A DNA stretch of 50,219 nt, taken from NCBI GenBank assembly GCA_902806415.1, contig CADCWN010000386.1, positions 1 through 50,219 on the forward strand, given 5' to 3'. Both the position numbers and the translations under genes were made by a program. Shown piece after piece: positions 747 through 36,412 of this stretch. The DNA is from an uncultured Thermomicrobiales bacterium. Lineage in GTDB: Bacteria > Chloroflexota > Chloroflexia > Thermomicrobiales > CADCWN01. The notes below the pieces were generated by a model. The model was given only the letters and a program-made list of their open reading frames with translations. It did not search any database and had not been told where the DNA came from. Position 1 is the first letter of the stretch. Every line of letters starts with the position of its first letter.

Positions 747-2342
747 ATGAGCGCGGGGGAACGCGAAAAAGGGTTCGCCCTCGACTGGCTCGATAAGGAG
801 CGCGAGCGACTATCTATGTTCGACCTGGAGATCTGGCGCTACGCGGAGCCGGCCTGGCGGGAGTATCGGTCGGCGCGGGCCTATGTCGAACTCTTGCGCG
901 CCGAAGGGTTCACCGTCGAGGAGGGCTCGGGCGGGATGCCGACCGCCTTCTGCGCCACCTGGGGCGAGGGCGGGCCGACGCTGGCGAGCTACGCCGAGTA
1001 CGACGCGGTGCCGGGGAATTCGCAGCAGGTCGTGCCGCGCCGCGCGCCGCGCGAGGGGCTGCACCCAGCGGCGGCGGGCCACACCGATCCGCACTCGATG
1101 CTCGGCGTCGCGGCCCTCGCCGGGATCCTCGCCGCGAAGGCGACGATGGAGCAGTATGGACTGTCAGGCACATTAAAATTCTTCGGCGAACCGGCGGAGA
1201 AGGTCTGCGGCTCGAAGCCGATCCACGCGGCGAAAGGCTACTACGATGGCGTGGACGCCTTCATCGCCTACCACCCCTGGCCGCAGAACAGCGTCGCCTG
1301 GGAGACCCATTTCGGGGCCTATTGGAGCGCCGTCTACACCTTCGAGTGCCCCGAGCCGGAGACCTGGATCGATCGGACGCTGATGCCGCCGGGGAGCGGC
1401 AGCCACGCGATCGCCCGCGCCCCCGGCGCGCTCGACGCCCTCTGCCTGATGTACACGATGACCAAGTACACCAAGGAGGCGATGTTCCCGCACACCGGGA
1501 CCTGGACCCTCAACGAGTTCGTCCTGGCGGCGGGCGACGCGACCGCCGACAACCTCGCCCCGAAGTTCAGCCAGATCCAGTACGCCTGGCGCGCGCCGGA
1601 CCTGAAGATCGCCGAGCAGATCGGGCGCGTGCTGGACAACAACGCGCGCAACGCCGCCGCGACGACCGGCTGCCGCGCCTCGATCCAGTGGGTCACCAAG
1701 ACGCGCGTCGGCCTGCCGAATCTGGCGCTGGCCGACCTGACCTATCGCAACCTGGCGCGGGTCGGCCCGCCCGTCTGGGCCGAGTCGGCGCTGACCTTCG
1801 GGCGGGAGATGCAGCGCGAGCTCGGCTGGCCGCAGACCGACTTCCCCTTCCAGCCGCAGGGGCGCGCGCTGACGCCGCCGCAGGAGTTCGAGGCGGGGCT
1901 GCGCGCGATCCTGCCGCCGTGGCAGCTGCACCAGAGCGCCGACGATTATGTCGAATACTGCTGGCACGCGCCGACGGTGCGCCTCTTCACCGCGCGTCCG
2001 ACCCTGCTCTCGGCCGACCCGCGCCACGCGCCGCCCGCCTGGACCTACAACGCTCTCGGCGGCCTCGCGGCGGCGGTCGATCCCGGCATGTTCGTCGCCG
2101 CCAAGACGATCGCCGCCACCCTGCTCGATTTGCTGACGCAGCCCGAAGAACTGGCGCGCTGCCAGGACGAGTGGCGCGAGCGGACCGGCGGCGGGATCGG
2201 CGGCGACCGCTGGGTCGGCCCGCTCCTCCCCGCCGACTTCAGCCCCCCGATCGATCTCCACTGGCCGGAATACGTCAACACCCCGCGCGGCGAGGAATGG
2301 TTTCTGCCGACGCCGATCGCCGGGGCGAACCAGGCGCTGTGA
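747..2342 (+). CDS. M20-family peptidase/amidohydrolase
   Basis: GHTDPHSMLG and GEPAEKV motifs; ATG at 747 preceded by AGGAGGGG; upstream part of the 108..2342 ORF is spurious. Confidence 0.8.
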   Translation: MSAGEREKGFALDWLDKERERLSMFDLEIWRYAEPAWREYRSARAYVELLRAEGFTVEEGSGGMPTAFCATWGEGGPTLASYAEYDAVPGNSQQVVPRRAPREGLHPAAAGHTDPHSMLGVAALAGILAAKATMEQYGLSGTLKFFGEPAEKVCGSKPIHAAKGYYDGVDAFIAYHPWPQNSVAWETHFGAYWSAVYTFECPEPETWIDRTLMPPGSGSHAIARAPGALDALCLMYTMTKYTKEAMFPHTGTWTLNEFVLAAGDATADNLAPKFSQIQYAWRAPDLKIAEQIGRVLDNNARNAAATTGCRASIQWVTKTRVGLPNLALADLTYRNLARVGPPVWAESALTFGREMQRELGWPQTDFPFQPQGRALTPPQEFEAGLRAILPPWQLHQSADDYVEYCWHAPTVRLFTARPTLLSADPRHAPPAWTYNALGGLAAAVDPGMFVAAKTIAATLLDLLTQPEELARCQDEWRERTGGGIGGDRWVGPLLPADFSPPIDLHWPEYVNTPRGEEWFLPTPIAGANQAL

Positions 2343-2351
2343 GGACATGAT

Positions 2352-2421
2352 GGTGGCTGGCGGCTGAAGCCGCGCCTCGCGGGCGGCTCACGCCGCCACA
2401 AAGCCTCCCTACGGAGGCTGG
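2352..2421 (-). repeat. Modular hairpin element, copy A
   Basis: Minus strand reads CCCAGCCTCCGTAGGGAGGCTTTGTGGCGGCGTGAGCCGCCCGCGAGGCGCGGCTTCAGCCGCCAGCCACC. Confidence 0.8.
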
Positions 2422-2465
2422 GTGACATGAGAGCCAGGGGGGTACCGCCGACTCTCGTATTCCCT

Positions 2466-2561
2466 AACCCGCGAAGGCGGGTTTTGTGGCCGCAGGCCCG
2501 CGAGGCGCGGCTTCAGCCGCCAGCCGGGTTTATAGCAAGTTTTCTCCCGAAGTCAGTATTA
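2466..2561 (+). repeat. Modular hairpin element, copy B, with right-end motif AAGTTTTCTCCCGAAGTCAGTATTA
   Basis: AACCCGCGAAGGCGGGTTTTGTGGCCGCAGGCCCGCGAGGCGCGGCTTCAGCCGCCAGCC; right end shared with copy G. Confidence 0.8.
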
Positions 2562-3773
2562 GAACCCATGCCCAAAATCGCTCGACAGCACATACTCGTG
2601 CTCGCTCCAGGGCGCGAGCCAGCCGTCGTCCGCGAATCGTTCGAGGCGGAACGACGCCAGATCCACGATCGCTGAGCGCCCATCGATGATCTGCTCGGCC
2701 AGCGCCTGCCCGACCGCTGGACCTTTCTTGAACCCCGCGCCGCTGAACCCGACGCAAAGGTGCAGCCCCTCGACGCCCGGCGCGAGGCCGATGATCGGGT
2801 GGGCGTCGGGGGTCATGTCGTAGAGGCCGGCGTGGCCGCCGAGCGGTGTCGCGCCCGCCATCGCCGGCATCCGGCGCGCGAGGTTGCCGAGCGCCCGCGC
2901 GGGGAACGTCGGGTTGGGGCGCTCGTCATAGGCGTCGGGATCGACCGACTCGTGTCCCTCGCCGCCCCCGATCCCGACCAGCGTGCGGTTCGGCCCCCAG
3001 TTGCGGCAGAAATGGTTGGCGGAGGTATCGACATAGGCCATCGTCCCGCCGCGCGGCATCGCGTCCGGGCTATTGACGATCGCCACCTGCACGCGGATCG
3101 GATCCAGCGGCACGGCGACACCGGCGGTCGCCAGGATCGGTGCGGCCCAGGCCCCCGCCGCGCAGACGACGACCGACGCGTCGATCGGCCCATCGCTCGT
3201 CTCCACGCCGTCGATCCGCCCGCCGACCGCCCGCAGCCCGGTGACCGCCACCCCCTCGCGCAGTCGCGCCCCGCGATCGAGCGCCGCGTCCATCATCCCG
3301 CGCGTCGCGGCGACCGCATCGACGTACCCCGACTCGGCCTCGTACGCCCCGACCGCGACATCATCGAAGCGCGCGAACGGCTGCAACCGGCGCAACTCCT
3401 CGGCGGGCAAGACCTCCGAGCGGATACCGACGCTGTTCTGCAAGGCGACGTTCGCCCGCATCCGCGCGATATTCGGGTCGTCCGGCCCGCTCGTCGCCAC
3501 CGTCACGATCAGGCCGCACCGGTCGTAGCCGCAGTCGCCGCCGACGATCTCGCCCCAATCCTTGAACATCTGGAGGCTGCGATGCGCCAACGTCGCCTCG
3601 GGGCGATTGCTGTAATGCTGACGCAGGAGCGCGCCGCTCTTGCCACTCGCCCCGGACGCCACGGTGCGCTTCTCCAGGACCAGCACATCGCGCACGCCAC
3701 GCCCGGCCAGCGCAAACGCGAGGCTCGCGCCCATGATTCCGCCGCCGATAATCACAACCTCCGCGCGCTCCAC
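2559..3773 (-). CDS. FAD-dependent oxidoreductase (DAO / sarcosine oxidase beta-like)
   Basis: N-terminal VVIIGGGIMGASLAFALA dinucleotide-binding motif; C-terminal TPDAHPIIGLAPGVEGLHLCVGFSGAGFKKGPAVGQ; GTG start at 3773 with GGAGGCAGG upstream. Confidence 0.85.
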   Translation of the reverse strand: MERAEVVIIGGGIMGASLAFALAGRGVRDVLVLEKRTVASGASGKSGALLRQHYSNRPEATLAHRSLQMFKDWGEIVGGDCGYDRCGLIVTVATSGPDDPNIARMRANVALQNSVGIRSEVLPAEELRRLQPFARFDDVAVGAYEAESGYVDAVAATRGMMDAALDRGARLREGVAVTGLRAVGGRIDGVETSDGPIDASVVVCAAGAWAAPILATAGVAVPLDPIRVQVAIVNSPDAMPRGGTMAYVDTSANHFCRNWGPNRTLVGIGGGEGHESVDPDAYDERPNPTFPARALGNLARRMPAMAGATPLGGHAGLYDMTPDAHPIIGLAPGVEGLHLCVGFSGAGFKKGPAVGQALAEQIIDGRSAIVDLASFRLERFADDGWLAPWSEHEYVLSSDFGHGF

Positions 3774-3956
3774 CCTGCCTCCAATGACGAGTGACGAGTG
3801 ACCGTGGTCCCCTGCCGTGTCGGGGGAGAGTGACGAATATAAGGATGGTAGGCGACACGAGGCGTGAGGGCAAACGCGGCCTCTCGTCAACCGGCGATTT
3901 GGTATAGTTCCGAGACAAGTGGCGCGGCGCGGCAGTTCGCGGCGGGGGAGTACAGG

Positions 3957-4175
3957 GTGAGCGGGATTAAACCGAGCGATCTGACGGGGGGCGGGGCGTT
4001 CCGCTGGGTGATTCGCGCGGTGGTGATCGGCTCGCTGCTGCTCGTCTTCCTGCTGCGCTACGGCTTCGACATCAACATCTTCCTCGCCATCCTCGTCAGC
4101 TCGACCGTGCTGCTCCTCGGTCTGCTGATCATCTGGTTCCTGCTGATTAGCGGGCGGATGAAGGTGCGGCACTGA
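3957..4175 (+). CDS. Small membrane protein (~72 aa, two predicted TM segments)
   Basis: Hydrophobic stretches VIRAVVIGSLLLVFLL and IFLAILVSSTVLLLGLLIIWFLL; GTG start. Confidence 0.55.
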   Translation: MSGIKPSDLTGGGAFRWVIRAVVIGSLLLVFLLRYGFDINIFLAILVSSTVLLLGLLIIWFLLISGRMKVRH

Positions 4176-4222
4176 GCGCGTTCGGCCGGCGGACGGTTGG
4201 CGCACCAAGCCAGAGCGATAAC

Positions 4223-4259
4223 AAAGAGGGGGGCGGCAACACTTGCCGCCCCCCTCTTT
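4223..4259. terminator. Bidirectional intrinsic terminator
   Basis: Perfect 17-bp stem AAAGAGGGGGGCGGCAA-cac-TTGCCGCCCCCCTCTTT between convergent genes. Confidence 0.85.
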
Positions 4260-4273
4260 CTTGCCCGATGGTG

Positions 4274-5788
4274 TTACGCCGGAGCCCCCGCCCCTTCTTC
4301 CTTGTCGGCCAGGGGAGCCTTGTAGGCCCAGTCGAAGTAGACGGTCTTGACCTGGGTGAAGAAATCGACCGCCGTCTTGCCCTGCTCGCGCGAGAACGAG
4401 CTGGACGCCTTCATCCCGCCGAACGGCGCGTGCGGCTCGGCCCCCGCCGTCTCGGAGTTGACGTGGATGATCCCCGCATCGATGTCGCGGATGAAGCCGA
4501 ACGCGGTGGCGATGTCGCGCGTGAAGATCGAGGCGGAGAGGCCGTACTTGACGCTGTTCGCCAGCGCCAGCCCTTCCGCCGGGTCGTCGATCGGCAGGAC
4601 CGCCAGCACCGGCCCGAAAATCTCCTCCTGCGCCAGCCGCCCCGTCGGCGCGATCCCGGTGAAGATCGTCGGCTTGACGAAGTAACCGTCGCCCAACTCC
4701 TCGGGCGCGCCGCCGGTCACCATCTCGCCGCCCTCGGCCCGCCCGATCCCGATGTAGTCCATCACGCTGTCGCGCTGGCCGGCCGAGACCAGCGGGCCGA
4801 GATCGGTCGTCGCGGCCAGCGGGTCGCCGACGCGCAGGCTCCCGGCGCGGGCGATCAGCTTGTCCACGAACTCGTCGTAGACGCCGCGCTGTACGAAGGC
4901 GCGGCTGGTGGCGGTGCATTTCTGGCCGCTGGACATCATCGCGCCGTTGATCGTCTGGGTCAACGCCAGATCGAGGTCGGCGTCGTTGAGGACGATCACC
5001 GGGTTCTTGCCGCCCATCTCCAGCTGCACCTTCACGCCGCGCTCGGAGTCGAGCGCCCGGCGATAGAGCGCCTTGCCGACCTCGTTCGAGCCGGTGAAGG
5101 TGATCGCGTTGACCGCCTCGTGGCCGACGATCGCGTCGCCGATCGCCCGCCCGGAGCCGGTGACCAGGTTCAGCACCCCCGGCGGCAGCCCCGCCTCGGC
5201 CAGGCACTCGACCAGCAGGGTCGCGGTCAGCGGCGTCAACTCGGCGGGCTTGAAGACGACCGTGTTGCCGTAGGCGAGGGCCGGGGCGATCTTCCAGGCC
5301 GGGATGGCGATCGGGAAGTTCCACGGCGTGATCGCCGCGACGACGCCGAGCGGCACGCGCTCAGTGTAGAGGAAGGTCGTCGGGTTGGACGAGGGGAGGC
5401 GGTCGCCGACCGGCTGCGCCGTCTCGCCGGCGAAGAAGCGGAGGATCGCGGAGGCGCGCAGCGTCTCGCCCTTGCCCTCCTTGAGCGTCTTCCCTTCCTC
5501 GCGGGTCAGCGCCTCGCCGATCTCGTCGGCCCGACGCTCGACGATCTGCGACGCCTTGTAGAGGATATTGCCGCGTGCGATCGGCGACATCTTGCGCCAG
5601 CCGTCGAGCGCGCCGTGCGCCGCATCCATCGCGCGGTCCACGTCGGCGATCGCCGAGGACTGGAAGTGACCCAGGATCTCGCCCGGCCTGGCTGGGTTAC
5701 GATTCTCCCCGGTCGCGCCGCTCGACGAGTCGGCCCATTCGCCGCCGATATAGTTCTGGTAGGTCTTCGCGGTTGCCGTTGCGATCAT
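4274..5788 (-). CDS. Aldehyde dehydrogenase (NAD(P)-dependent)
   Basis: TPWNFPIAIPAWKIAPALAYGNTVVFKPAE, FTGSNEVGK, LEMGGKNPVIV, GQKCTATSR, EEIFGPVLAV; ATG with GGGAGGAACG upstream. Confidence 0.93.
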   Translation of the reverse strand: MIATATAKTYQNYIGGEWADSSSGATGENRNPARPGEILGHFQSSAIADVDRAMDAAHGALDGWRKMSPIARGNILYKASQIVERRADEIGEALTREEGKTLKEGKGETLRASAILRFFAGETAQPVGDRLPSSNPTTFLYTERVPLGVVAAITPWNFPIAIPAWKIAPALAYGNTVVFKPAELTPLTATLLVECLAEAGLPPGVLNLVTGSGRAIGDAIVGHEAVNAITFTGSNEVGKALYRRALDSERGVKVQLEMGGKNPVIVLNDADLDLALTQTINGAMMSSGQKCTATSRAFVQRGVYDEFVDKLIARAGSLRVGDPLAATTDLGPLVSAGQRDSVMDYIGIGRAEGGEMVTGGAPEELGDGYFVKPTIFTGIAPTGRLAQEEIFGPVLAVLPIDDPAEGLALANSVKYGLSASIFTRDIATAFGFIRDIDAGIIHVNSETAGAEPHAPFGGMKASSSFSREQGKTAVDFFTQVKTVYFDWAYKAPLADKEEGAGAPA

Positions 5789-32617: not shown

Positions 32618-35143
32618 ATGAGTAACGGCGAGGAGTGGGCCGAGGCCCTGGGCTATCGGCGGCGTTATCGGGGCGTGATCGGCGTGGCGAGCAAGGTGCC
32701 GATCAGGGACCGCTCGGTCCTCAGTCTGGTCTACACGCCGGGCGTCGCGGAGCCCTGCCTGGTGATCGCGCGCGAGCCGGACACATCGTTCGATCTGACG
32801 TCGCGCGGCAACACCGTCGCGATCGTCACCGACGGCTCGGCCCTCTTCGGGCATGGCAACGCGCCGCCCGAGGCGGCCCTGCCGGTCCTGGAGGGCAAGT
32901 CAGTCCTCTTCAAGACGTTCGCCGGGATCGACGCCTTCCCGATCTGCCTCGACACGCGCGACCCGCAGCGGATCGTCCAGACCCTCTATAGCCTGACGCC
33001 GACCTTCGGCGCGATCGCGCTCGATAATATGACCGCGCCCAACTCGTTCACCCTGGCCGATCAGCTGGAGAAAGCGGCCAACATCCCGGTCTTCTCCAAT
33101 CAGCATCACGCGTCGGCGGTCGTCGTCCTGGCGGCCCTCTACAACGCGCTGAAAGTCGTCGGCAAGCGGATCGAGGATGTCACGATCGTCGTCAACGGCG
33201 CGGGGGTCACCGGGATCGGGGCCGCGCGCCTGCTGGTGCGCGCCAAGGCGAAGGAGGTGATCGTCTGCGATCGCGCCGGGGCGCTGGTGCCATACCGCAC
33301 CAGCGACATGCACTGGGCCAAGGCGTATCTGGCGAAGGAGACCAACCTCCGCCGCCGCACCGGCAGCCTAGCCGAGATGCTCGTCGGGGCCGACGTCTTC
33401 GTTGGCCTCTCCGCGCGCGAGACCCTGACGCCGGAGATGGTCCGCTCGATGGCCGACGACCCGATTATCTTCGCCTGCGCCGCCCCGGACCCGGAGATCG
33501 ACCCGGAGGATGCTCGCAAGGCCGGGGCGCGGGTGATCGCCACCAGCCGCTCCGACTACCCGAACCAGATGGACCCGGCGCTCGTCTTCCCCGGCGTCTT
33601 CCGGGGGCTGCTCGACGCGCGGGCGCGCAACATCAACATGGCGATCCTCGACGGCGCGGCGCGCGCCCTGGCCGATTGCGTCCCGGCGAATCGCCTCCAC
33701 GCGGAGAATATCCTGCCGCCGATCTTCGACTTCCGCGTCGCCCCGACGATCGCCGCGGCGGTCGTCCGCGCGGCCAGCGCCAGCGGCGAGGCCCGGCGCG
33801 ATGTTGCCCCGGAGGTCGAGGCCGAACGGACCCGCCGGATCGTCTACGAGGGGCAGATGACCAACTCCTCGGTCAATGGGGCGGAGCGGATCGGCCCCGA
33901 GGCGTCGCTGAAAGAGCGCGCCCTCGACCTGCGCCACCGCTACGGCGGGATGCTGGAGATCAAGAGCAAGATCCCGATCAAGGACCACCATATCCTGAAC
34001 ATGCTCTACGTGCCGCCCGCCGCCGTCGCGCCCGCCGAGGAGGTGCGCCGCGACCCGATGCAGGTCTACGAGCTGACCGCCAAGGGGAATCTGGTCGCGA
34101 TCGTCACCGACGGCAGCGCCGTCCTCGGGCTGGGGGACATCGGCCCGCAGGCGGCGCTGCCGGTGATGGAGGGGAAGGCGGTCCTCTTCTCGACCCTCGG
34201 CGGGGTCGAGGCGTTCCCGATCTGTCTCGCCGCGCGCGACCCCGATGAGATCGTGGAAATCGTCAAGAACATCGCCCCGACCTTCGGCGGCATCAACCTG
34301 GAGGACATCGCCGCGCCGCGCTGCTTCGAGATCGAGCAGAAGCTCCAGGCCCTGCTCGACATCCCGGTCTTCCACGACGACCAGCACGGCACCGCCGTCG
34401 TCACCCTCGCCGCGCTGATCAACGCGCTGAAGATCGCCGGCAAGACGATGGAGCAGGTGCGGATCGTCATCAACGGCACCGGCGCAGCGGGCGTCGCGGT
34501 CGCCAAGCTGCTGCTGCAGTACGGCGTCGGCGACATCATCCTCTGCGACCGTTCCGGCGCGGTCTACAGCGGCCGACCGGAGGGGATGAACAGCGCCAAG
34601 GACGAGATCGCCGCGATCACCAACAAGGACCGCCTCGCCGGGCGGTTGGAGCAGGTGATCACCGGCGCGGATGTCTTCATCGGCCTCTCCGCCCCCGGCT
34701 CGCTGACCCAGGCGATGATCGGCGAGATGGCCGAGGGGCCGATCGTCTTCGCCCTCGCCAACCCGACGCCGGAGATCGACCCGGCGCTGGCGAAGGAGGC
34801 GGGCGCGCTCGTCGTCGCCACCGGGCGCTCGGACTACCCGAATCAGGTCAACAACTCGCTCGCCTTCCCCGGCATCTTCCGGGGGGCGCTCGACGCCAAG
34901 GCGCGGGTCATCAACGACGCGATGAAGATCGCCGCCGCCGAGGCGATCGCCTCCCTGGTGACGCCGCAGGAGTTGGGGGCCGAGTTCATCATCCCCGACA
35001 GCATCAGCTACCGCGTGCCACCGAAGGTCGCCGCCGCCGTCGCCCGCGCCGCCGTGGCGACCGGCGAGGCCCGCGCCGAGGTCAACCCGGACGAGGTCGA
35101 GGCGCGCACCTTCGACCTGCTCTATGGCGGGGCGTCGCAGTAG
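32618..35143 (+). CDS. Tandem fusion of two malic-enzyme (MaeB-type small ME) domains, 841 aa
   Basis: Two full ME domains in one frame: copy 1 from [10 protein letters not shown] to [11 protein letters not shown]; copy 2 [16 protein letters not shown]-like, [19 protein letters not shown]. Confidence 0.92.
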
Positions 35144-35398: not shown

Positions 35399-36412
35399 AT
35401 GGGCGTGGGTCGTGAGCAGGATGCGACACTGGGGGTGACGCTGGCCGATGTCGAGGCGGCGCGCGACCGGATCGCGGGGCGGATTCACCGGACGCCCCTC
35501 CTGTCGTCGCAGACCCTCGGGCGGGCGATCGGCCTCGGCGGTCTGGTCTGGCTCAAGGCCGAGAGTTTCCAGCGCACCGGCTCGTTCAAGGTGCGCGGCG
35601 CGCTGAACAAGATCGAGACCCTCTCCGCCGAGGAGAAGGCGCGCGGCGTGATCACCGTCTCCGCCGGCAACCACGCGCAAGGGGTCGCCTGGGCCGCCGC
35701 CGCCGCTGGGGTCCGCGCGACGATCGTGATGGCCGAGATCGCCTCGCCAACGAAAGTCGCCGCCACGCGCGAGTACGGGGCCGAGGTGATCCTCTTCGGG
35801 CGGGACAATATCGCCGCGTTCGCCGAGATGGAGCGCCTGCGCGCCGAGCGCGGCCTGATCCTCGTCCATCCCTTCGACGACCCGCAGACGATCGCCGGGC
35901 AGGGGACGATCGGCCTCGAAATCCTGGCGGATTTGCCGCTCCTCGGGACCGGCGCGGGGGCGGGGCGCGACACGATCGTCGTGCCGATCGGCGGCGGCGG
36001 GCTGATCGCCGGGATCGCGCTGGCGATCAAGGCGCAGCGACCGGGCGTGCGGATCATCGGCGTCGAACCGCAGGGCGCGCCGAGTATGCACACCGCGCTC
36101 GCGGCGGGGCGGGTCGTCCCGCTCACCAACATCCAGACGGTTGCCGACGGCCTGACTGCGCCGTTCGCCGGGGCGATCAATCTCGCCCTGGTGCAGCGCC
36201 ATGTCGAGGAGGTCGCCTTGCTCGACGACGAGACGATCCTGACCGGACTGCGCTTCCTCCTCGAACGAGCGAAGCTCGTCGTCGAGCCGGCGGCGGCGGC
36301 GGGCGTCGCCGCGCTCCTCAGCGGGGCGGTGCGGGTCGAGCCGGGCGCGACGGTCGTCGCGCTGATCGGCGGCGGCAACATCGATCTGGAGCGACTGAAG
36401 GGCTATCTCTGA
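35399..36412 (+). CDS. Threonine ammonia-lyase / serine-threonine dehydratase (PLP)
   Basis: ESFQRTGSFKVRGA, VSAGNHAQGVAWAA, PIGGGGLIAGIALA. Confidence 0.93.
   Translation: MGVGREQDATLGVTLADVEAARDRIAGRIHRTPLLSSQTLGRAIGLGGLVWLKAESFQRTGSFKVRGALNKIETLSAEEKARGVITVSAGNHAQGVAWAAAAAGVRATIVMAEIASPTKVAATREYGAEVILFGRDNIAAFAEMERLRAERGLILVHPFDDPQTIAGQGTIGLEILADLPLLGTGAGAGRDTIVVPIGGGGLIAGIALAIKAQRPGVRIIGVEPQGAPSMHTALAAGRVVPLTNIQTVADGLTAPFAGAINLALVQRHVEEVALLDDETILTGLRFLLERAKLVVEPAAAAGVAALLSGAVRVEPGATVVALIGGGNIDLERLKGYL

What the first reader, a model, noticed from the sequence alone, without database searches (positions are those of the whole stretch)
32618..35143. Single ORF fusing two malic-enzyme domains, first copy with lost metal-ligand motifs
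Sequence shows two complete ~415-aa MaeB-type domains in one frame. Copy 2 keeps [18 protein letters not shown] and NQVNN. Copy 1 has [18 protein letters not shown] and NQMDP at those places, yet keeps [10 protein letters not shown] and the EGK lysine. Copy 2 in turn has an unusual [10 protein letters not shown] at the tyrosine motif and VLFSTLGG instead of VLFKTFAG. Known hybrid malic enzymes fuse ME to a PTA-like domain, so an ME-ME fusion with one apparently dead copy suggests a built-in pseudo-enzyme regulator or a pseudo-heterodimer with a shared active site (inference).
Basis: partly seen in the sequence, partly recalled or inferred. Interest (0 to 1): 0.78.

Follow-up and report, generated by a model that had tools for sequence, protein, structure and literature searches.

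The report
One-active-site fused double malic enzyme
A bacterial malic enzyme that normally works as a pair of identical proteins has been fused into one chain whose two halves have lost complementary catalytic parts, so that by sequence only one of the two shared active sites can still work; the arrangement is old, found in several bacterial phyla, and we found no earlier description of it.

Summary
Window 32618-35143 (+) encodes one 841-aa protein with two small (MaeB-type) malic-enzyme units, the only malic enzyme found in its genome. It is not a local oddity: single matches of at least 800 residues occur in 43 of 61 genomes of its order (Thermomicrobiales), and a genome-wide scan found 64 complete fusions, also in other Chloroflexota, Methylomirabilota, Desulfobacterales, Nitrospirota and Gemmatimonadota. 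Copies 1 and 2 form one clade each, which points to one old duplication-fusion. Solved small malic enzymes are entangled dimers with composite active sites: Tyr comes from one protomer, Lys, catalytic Asp and metal ligands from the other. The halves have decayed along that line. Copy 1 keeps Tyr (YTPGV) in 66 of 66 fusions but never has the catalytic Asp. Copy 2 keeps Lys, acidic ligands and Asn residues in 66 of 66 but never has YTPG; five lost the Tyr itself. Copy 1 is under purifying selection as strong as copy 2. AlphaFold predicts a confident two-half assembly (pTM 0.92, two orthologues). Best reading: a covalent pseudo-heterodimer with one working composite site and one dead site. Whether the dead site is a regulator is open.

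The parts
32618..35143 (+). ME-ME fusion gene, 841 codons plus stop
32618..33856 (+). Copy 1 (residues about 1-413): malic-enzyme unit predicted to donate the Tyr arm; its own site is predicted dead
32732..32746 (+). Copy-1 Tyr motif Y39-T-P-G-V43, intact in all 66 fusions
32897..32899 (+). Copy-1 K94 (EhME Lys120-equivalent), kept in 58 of 66 fusions, Arg or Asn in the rest
32912..32932 (+). Copy-1 K99 to D105 (EhME Lys125 and Asp131, inter-monomer contacts); both invariant in copy 1, changed in copy 2 (S525, E531)
33023..33028 (+). Copy-1 D136-N137 in place of the metal ligands Glu-Asp
33095..33109 (+). Copy-1 S160-N-Q-H-H164 in place of H-D-D-Q-H; the catalytic Asp position is never Asp in 66 fusions
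33197..33214 (+). Copy-1 nucleotide-binding GxGxxG (G194-G199), retained
33572..33577 (+). Copy-1 D319-P320 in place of Asn-Asn
33857..33907 (+). Linker, residues about 414-430 (low model confidence around 411-430)
33908..35140 (+). Copy 2 (residues about 431-841): malic-enzyme unit with all Lys/Asp/metal/Asn residues
34007..34018 (+). Copy-2 Y464-V-P-P467 in place of Y-T-P-G; Tyr itself is His, Cys or Phe in 5 of 66 fusions
34175..34177 (+). Copy-2 K520, catalytic Lys, 66 of 66
34301..34306 (+). Copy-2 E562-D563, metal ligands, 66 of 66
34373..34381 (+). Copy-2 H586-D587-D588: catalytic Asp and main metal ligand, 66 of 66
34475..34492 (+). Copy-2 nucleotide-binding GxGxxG (G620-G625)
34760..34762 (+). 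Copy-2 N715 (ANPTPE), 66 of 66
34850..34855 (+). Copy-2 N745-N746 (NQVNN), 66 of 66

Best explanation
The gene encodes a covalently fused malic-enzyme pseudo-heterodimer with one working active site. As in other small malic enzymes, the two units entwine so that each sends an arm carrying the catalytic Tyr into its partner's site. The arm of copy 1 (Y39) completes the site formed by K520, D587, the metal ligands E562, D563 and D588 and N715, N745 and N746 of copy 2, which carries out ordinary oxidative decarboxylation of malate to pyruvate. The reciprocal site (copy-2 Y464 with copy-1 K94, D136, N137, N161, Q162) is catalytically dead. Shown here: the fusion, its single-origin tree, the complementary residue losses, purifying selection on both halves and a confident two-half model. 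Inferred from published dimer structures: the crossover and which Tyr serves which site. Not shown: activity, cofactor preference, and any role of the dead site beyond holding the partner's arm.
For: Published dimers: Tyr comes from the opposing protomer, Lys, Asp and metal ligands from the other. 66 distinct fusions: copy-1 Tyr 66/66 and catalytic Asp 0/66; copy-2 Lys, Glu, Asp, His, Asp, Asp, Asn, Asn, Asn 66/66, YTPG 0/66, Tyr lost in 5. Columns lost only in copy 2 are the Tyr arm (S36, T40, G42, V43) and two inter-monomer contacts (K99, D105); columns lost only in copy 1 include the catalytic and metal residues. Copy 1 and copy 2 form one clade each, also without motif columns. dN/dS of copy 1 is low and mostly equal to or below that of copy 2. 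AlphaFold pTM 0.92 over the whole chain for two orthologues of 53% identity; one half matches 5CEE at TM 0.96. It is the only malic enzyme found in this genome.
Against: No coordinates were available, so the crossover and distances were not measured. Copy 2 keeps a Tyr at position 464 in 61 of 66 fusions, so a role for it is not excluded. Lys94 is kept in 58 of 66, which a purely dead site would not need. No enzyme assay exists. Many relatives are metagenome bins.
Confidence: 0.84

Rival explanations
1. Copy 1 is a plain pseudo-enzyme regulator and copy 2 is catalytically self-sufficient, using its own Y464, in cis or by pairing with copy 2 of another chain.
For: Copy 2 holds all Lys/Asp/metal/Asn residues and a Tyr in 61 of 66 fusions.
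Against: Its YTPG is broken in every fusion and the Tyr is His, Cys or Phe in five. The copy-1 Tyr motif is invariant, which a mere regulator would not need. Small MEs take Tyr from the partner.
Confidence: 0.07
2. Both sites work, but copy 1 has acquired a different reaction or substrate (neofunctionalisation).
For: Copy 1 is strongly constrained, keeps Lys in 58 of 66 and the nucleotide motif, and the SNQHH motif is stable within Thermomicrobiales.
Against: The replacement residues differ between lineages (SNQHH, NNHG, HNHA, HNDQ, HTDQ), Lys is lost in some, and the partner Tyr (copy 2) is lost in five. A shared new reaction would be expected to share residues.
Confidence: 0.06
3. The fusion is an assembly or annotation artefact, or a decaying pseudogene.
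For: A few bins show frameshifts or an in-frame stop in the gene (G008, G055, G320).
Against: The same uninterrupted architecture occurs in dozens of independent assemblies, including isolates (Thermomicrobium sp. CFH 73360, Thermalbibacter longus) and MAG chromosomes; dN/dS of both halves is low.
Confidence: 0.01

Closest known systems
Small prokaryotic-type malic enzymes (Phytoplasma 5CEE, Thermotoga 1VL6/2HAE, Pyrococcus 1WW8/2DVM, Entamoeba EhME 3NV9)
   Same: Same fold and domains, same catalytic residues in total; composite site between two units is the known design.
   Different: They are homodimers with two equal sites; here the two units are one chain and have lost complementary parts, so one complete site remains by sequence.
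Hybrid malic enzymes MaeB (ME-PTA; Bdellovibrio 6ZNG/6ZNJ, E. coli 9KRW)
   Same: An ME unit fused to a second, catalytically inactive domain; the Tyr helix is swapped.
   Different: The partner domain is PTA-like and senses acetyl-CoA; here it is a second ME unit, and no PTA domain is present.
Eukaryotic phosphofructokinase-1 (duplication and tandem fusion; effector sites from former ligand sites, PMC2990764)
   Same: Internal duplication-fusion of a metabolic enzyme followed by divergence of the two halves.
   Different: In PFK-1 effector binding is documented; here it is untested. Here the halves also divide one composite catalytic site.
Tandem ACT-ME gene pair in Chloroflexota (L065)
   Same: Same family and phylum, two ME units side by side.
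   Different: Two separate genes, each with an ACT domain; the copy tested has all motifs intact.

Membership tests
Small prokaryotic malic enzyme (PF00390 + PF03949) | Both malic-enzyme domains over the curated cut-off | tested here: met
   PF03949 161.8 bits and PF00390 142.1 bits, two stretches each; fold match to 5CEE, TM 0.96
Small prokaryotic malic enzyme (PF00390 + PF03949) | Complete catalytic set Tyr, Lys, Asp and metal ligands Glu, Asp, Asp in one polypeptide type forming two equal sites | tested here: not met
   The full set exists only when the Tyr motif of copy 1 is combined with copy 2; copy 1 lacks the Asp and copy 2 lacks YTPG in 66 of 66 fusions
Small prokaryotic malic enzyme (PF00390 + PF03949) | Entangled dimer with Tyr donated in trans | tested here: inconclusive
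   Confident whole-chain model (pTM 0.92) and complementary losses, but no coordinates to measure
Small prokaryotic malic enzyme (PF00390 + PF03949) | Malate oxidation and decarboxylation with NAD(P)+ | not testable with these tools
Hybrid malic enzyme MaeB (ME-PTA) | C-terminal phosphotransacetylase-like domain | tested here: not met
   No PTA family in Pfam scan; NCBIfam PRK12861 653 bits against a cut-off of 1178
Fused enzyme whose former active site became an effector site (PFK-1-like) | Internal duplication and tandem fusion | tested here: met
   Copy 1 and copy 2 one clade each, together apart from single enzymes; the root was not proven
Fused enzyme whose former active site became an effector site (PFK-1-like) | Effector binding at the former active site | not testable with these tools
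   Only indirect hints: copy 1 keeps GxGxxG, the strand-2 Asp and mostly Lys

The most novel reading that the evidence does not exclude
The dead reciprocal site has become an effector sensor: copy 1 binds a dinucleotide, and perhaps malate or a related acid, without turnover and sets the activity of the single working site through the shared crossover arms. This would be a way of regulating malic enzyme without a PTA or ACT domain, arisen once and spread across bacterial phyla.
Probability: 0.3. Interest if true: 0.78.

Novelty: new variant of a known kind. Interest (0 to 1): 0.62.

Why it matters
Malic enzyme is a central-carbon enzyme, and the reason why small malic enzymes share active sites between protomers is called unclear in the EhME paper (PMC11944484). 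This natural fusion is an experiment on that question: evolution has separated the Tyr-donating role from the Lys/metal role within one chain, and the complementary decay across 66 fusions is independent sequence support for Tyr acting in trans. It offers a one-site malic enzyme in which each residue can be changed in one protomer only, and it shows that routine annotation as an ordinary malic enzyme hides a distinct architecture.

Tried and rejected
Hybrid MaeB: rejected, no PTA domain and NCBIfam score far below cut-off. Two separate genes or a stop at the junction: rejected. Recent tandem duplication: rejected, the halves are about 49% identical and form separate deep clades. Separate fusions in each lineage: not supported, one copy-1 and one copy-2 clade. 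Clades caused by convergent motif changes: rejected by removing motif columns and using a mixture model. Conserved operon: not found; the window's neighbours are a TetR regulator, a short-chain dehydrogenase and a PLP-dependent enzyme, and they differ in a Thermomicrobium relative. Literature on ME-ME fusion: five searches of open-access full text found none. Counting the fusion in other phyla with the genome search failed, because only genome handles are accepted as centre. Distances in the predicted model could not be measured, because coordinates are not released.

Full report
WHAT IS THERE. Window 32618-35143 (+) is one open frame of 841 codons with two malic-enzyme units: PF00390 and PF03949, two stretches each. 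The best solved relatives are Phytoplasma 5CEE, 2A9F, Thermotoga 2HAE/1VL6 and Pyrococcus 1WW8, all matched best by the second half. The DNA crosses the junction without a stop. A PF00390 search of the whole assembly (5.16 Mb, 92.6% complete) finds only this gene.

HOW WIDESPREAD. Of 61 genomes (the window's own, one of its family, 59 of its order), 52 have a match, 43 of them as one segment of at least 800 residues at 63-82% identity; the other nine are broken by contig ends or frameshifts (counted by hand from its table). Besides the fusion, a second malic enzyme was seen in only two of them (G050, G025). Named relatives show that the order is Thermomicrobiales (Thermomicrobium, Sphaerobacter, Thermalbibacter). 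A scan of 84,980 species genomes with a copy-1 alignment gave 242 confirmed stretches, of which the best 80 loci were kept. Of these, 64 hold two full units in one frame, 10 are cut or frameshifted members, and 6 are single enzymes, mainly Bacillota. Fusions outside Thermomicrobiota/Chloroflexota lie in records labelled Methylomirabilota, Desulfobacterales, Nitrospirota, Gemmatimonadota, Myxococcota/Deltaproteobacteria, Pseudomonadota and Cyanobacteriota. Most are metagenome bins, so single labels are soft, but several are long contigs or whole chromosomes. The list is a lower bound, since it was capped and seeded by two peptide patterns.

ORIGIN. Copy-1 sequences form one clade (100/100) and copy-2 sequences another (100/99), both separated from single malic enzymes (98/93). 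The same split appears with a mixture model after removing the motif columns (100/100, 100/98, 97/92). If the root lies among the single enzymes this is one internal duplication and fusion; the unrooted tree does not prove the root.

THE PATTERN. In solved small malic enzymes the dimer is entangled and the opposite protomer brings the catalytic Tyr (Y52' in Bdellovibrio MaeB, PMC7902834; Tyr65' in Entamoeba EhME, PMC11944484). Lys120, Asp193 and the metal ligands Glu168, Asp169 and Asp194 come from the other protomer. In 66 distinct fusions copy 1 has the Tyr in 66, but the Asp193-equivalent is Asn in 61, Ser, Thr or Ala in 5 and Asp in none; the Asp194-equivalent is kept in only 10, and Lys is replaced in 8. 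Copy 2 has Lys, Glu, Asp, His, Asp, Asp and three Asn in all 66, while its YTPG is always broken, usually to YLPP or YVPP (Gly to Pro in 45 of 45 non-redundant sequences), and its Tyr is His, Cys or Phe in five. Columns that single enzymes and copy 1 conserve but copy 2 lost are only S36, T40, G42, V43, K99 and D105: the Tyr arm plus two residues whose EhME equivalents Lys125 and Asp131 contact Ile49 of the other protomer. Columns lost by copy 1 but kept by copy 2 include N560, E573, H586, D587, D588, Q589, N715, N745 and N746, several of them known catalytic or metal residues. Each half has lost what the other half supplies to the same site.

CONSTRAINT AND STRUCTURE. Copy 1 is not decaying: pairwise dN/dS is about 0.02-0.24, mostly equal to or below that of copy 2 (Nei-Gojobori, pairs share branches, dS often near or above 1). 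It keeps GxGxxG almost throughout and the strand-2 Asp in 44 of 44. AlphaFold on 65 aligned fusions gives mean pLDDT 93.0 and pTM 0.92 over 841 residues; a 53%-identical relative (L140) gives 93.4 and 0.92. Such a pTM over two halves of about 410 residues means that their mutual placement is predicted with confidence. One half matches 5CEE at TM 0.96 and 1.5 A over 388 columns, so its arm probably has the conformation seen in that entangled dimer (inference).

MECHANISM. Most likely a covalent pseudo-heterodimer with one working composite site: Tyr39 of copy 1 with Lys520, Asp587, Glu562, Asp563, Asp588 and the Asn residues of copy 2, carrying out ordinary malate oxidation and decarboxylation. 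The reciprocal site is dead. In some lineages (L137-L141, L145) copy 1 still has Glu, Asp and the Asp194-equivalent and has lost mainly the Asp193-equivalent, which suggests that this loss came first and the metal site eroded later (inference). Three readings of the dead site remain: scaffold only, effector sensor, or a new activity. The retained nucleotide motif favours some ligand; the lineage-specific replacements argue against one shared new reaction.

VERDICT. The pseudo-heterodimer reading is well supported and the regulator reading is open. It is a new variant of a known enzyme family, with no description found in the open literature searched.

Noticed in passing
L065:3707-6759 (G384, same phylum): Two adjacent separate malic-enzyme genes, each with an N-terminal ACT domain; the ends of their open frames overlap. 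Many single malic enzymes of Chloroflexota have a similar N-terminal extension of about 100 residues.
   Followed up: partly
L134:2-4260 (Chloroflexi MAG, JAMCWQ010000069.1): A second, partial ME-ME fusion frame lies directly upstream of a complete one, so the fusion itself seems tandemly duplicated there.
   Followed up: no
L064 (G320, contig C334, same phylum): A fusion with an in-frame TGA in copy 1; copy 1 has also lost the catalytic Lys (LEDAYIH) and LEDI (LTSI) but keeps YTPGV, while copy 2 keeps all its motifs. Low-quality bin; it may be a sequencing error or a pseudogene.
   Followed up: partly
L034 = L154 (Chloroflexi bacterium GL140_3), frame 1597-4533: The two halves are joined by a linker longer by about 80 residues than in the window, low in complexity.
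   Followed up: no
window D105 and E531, all fusions: A strict split at an inter-protomer contact position: Asp in 44 of 44 copy-1 and 28 of 28 single sequences, Glu in 45 of 45 copy-2 sequences. A possible marker for this architecture.
   Followed up: partly
window 35399-36412 (+) and L082:6754-7800: A PLP-dependent enzyme of the threonine dehydratase type follows the fusion gene in the window and in its closest relative, not in the Thermomicrobium locus examined.
   Followed up: partly
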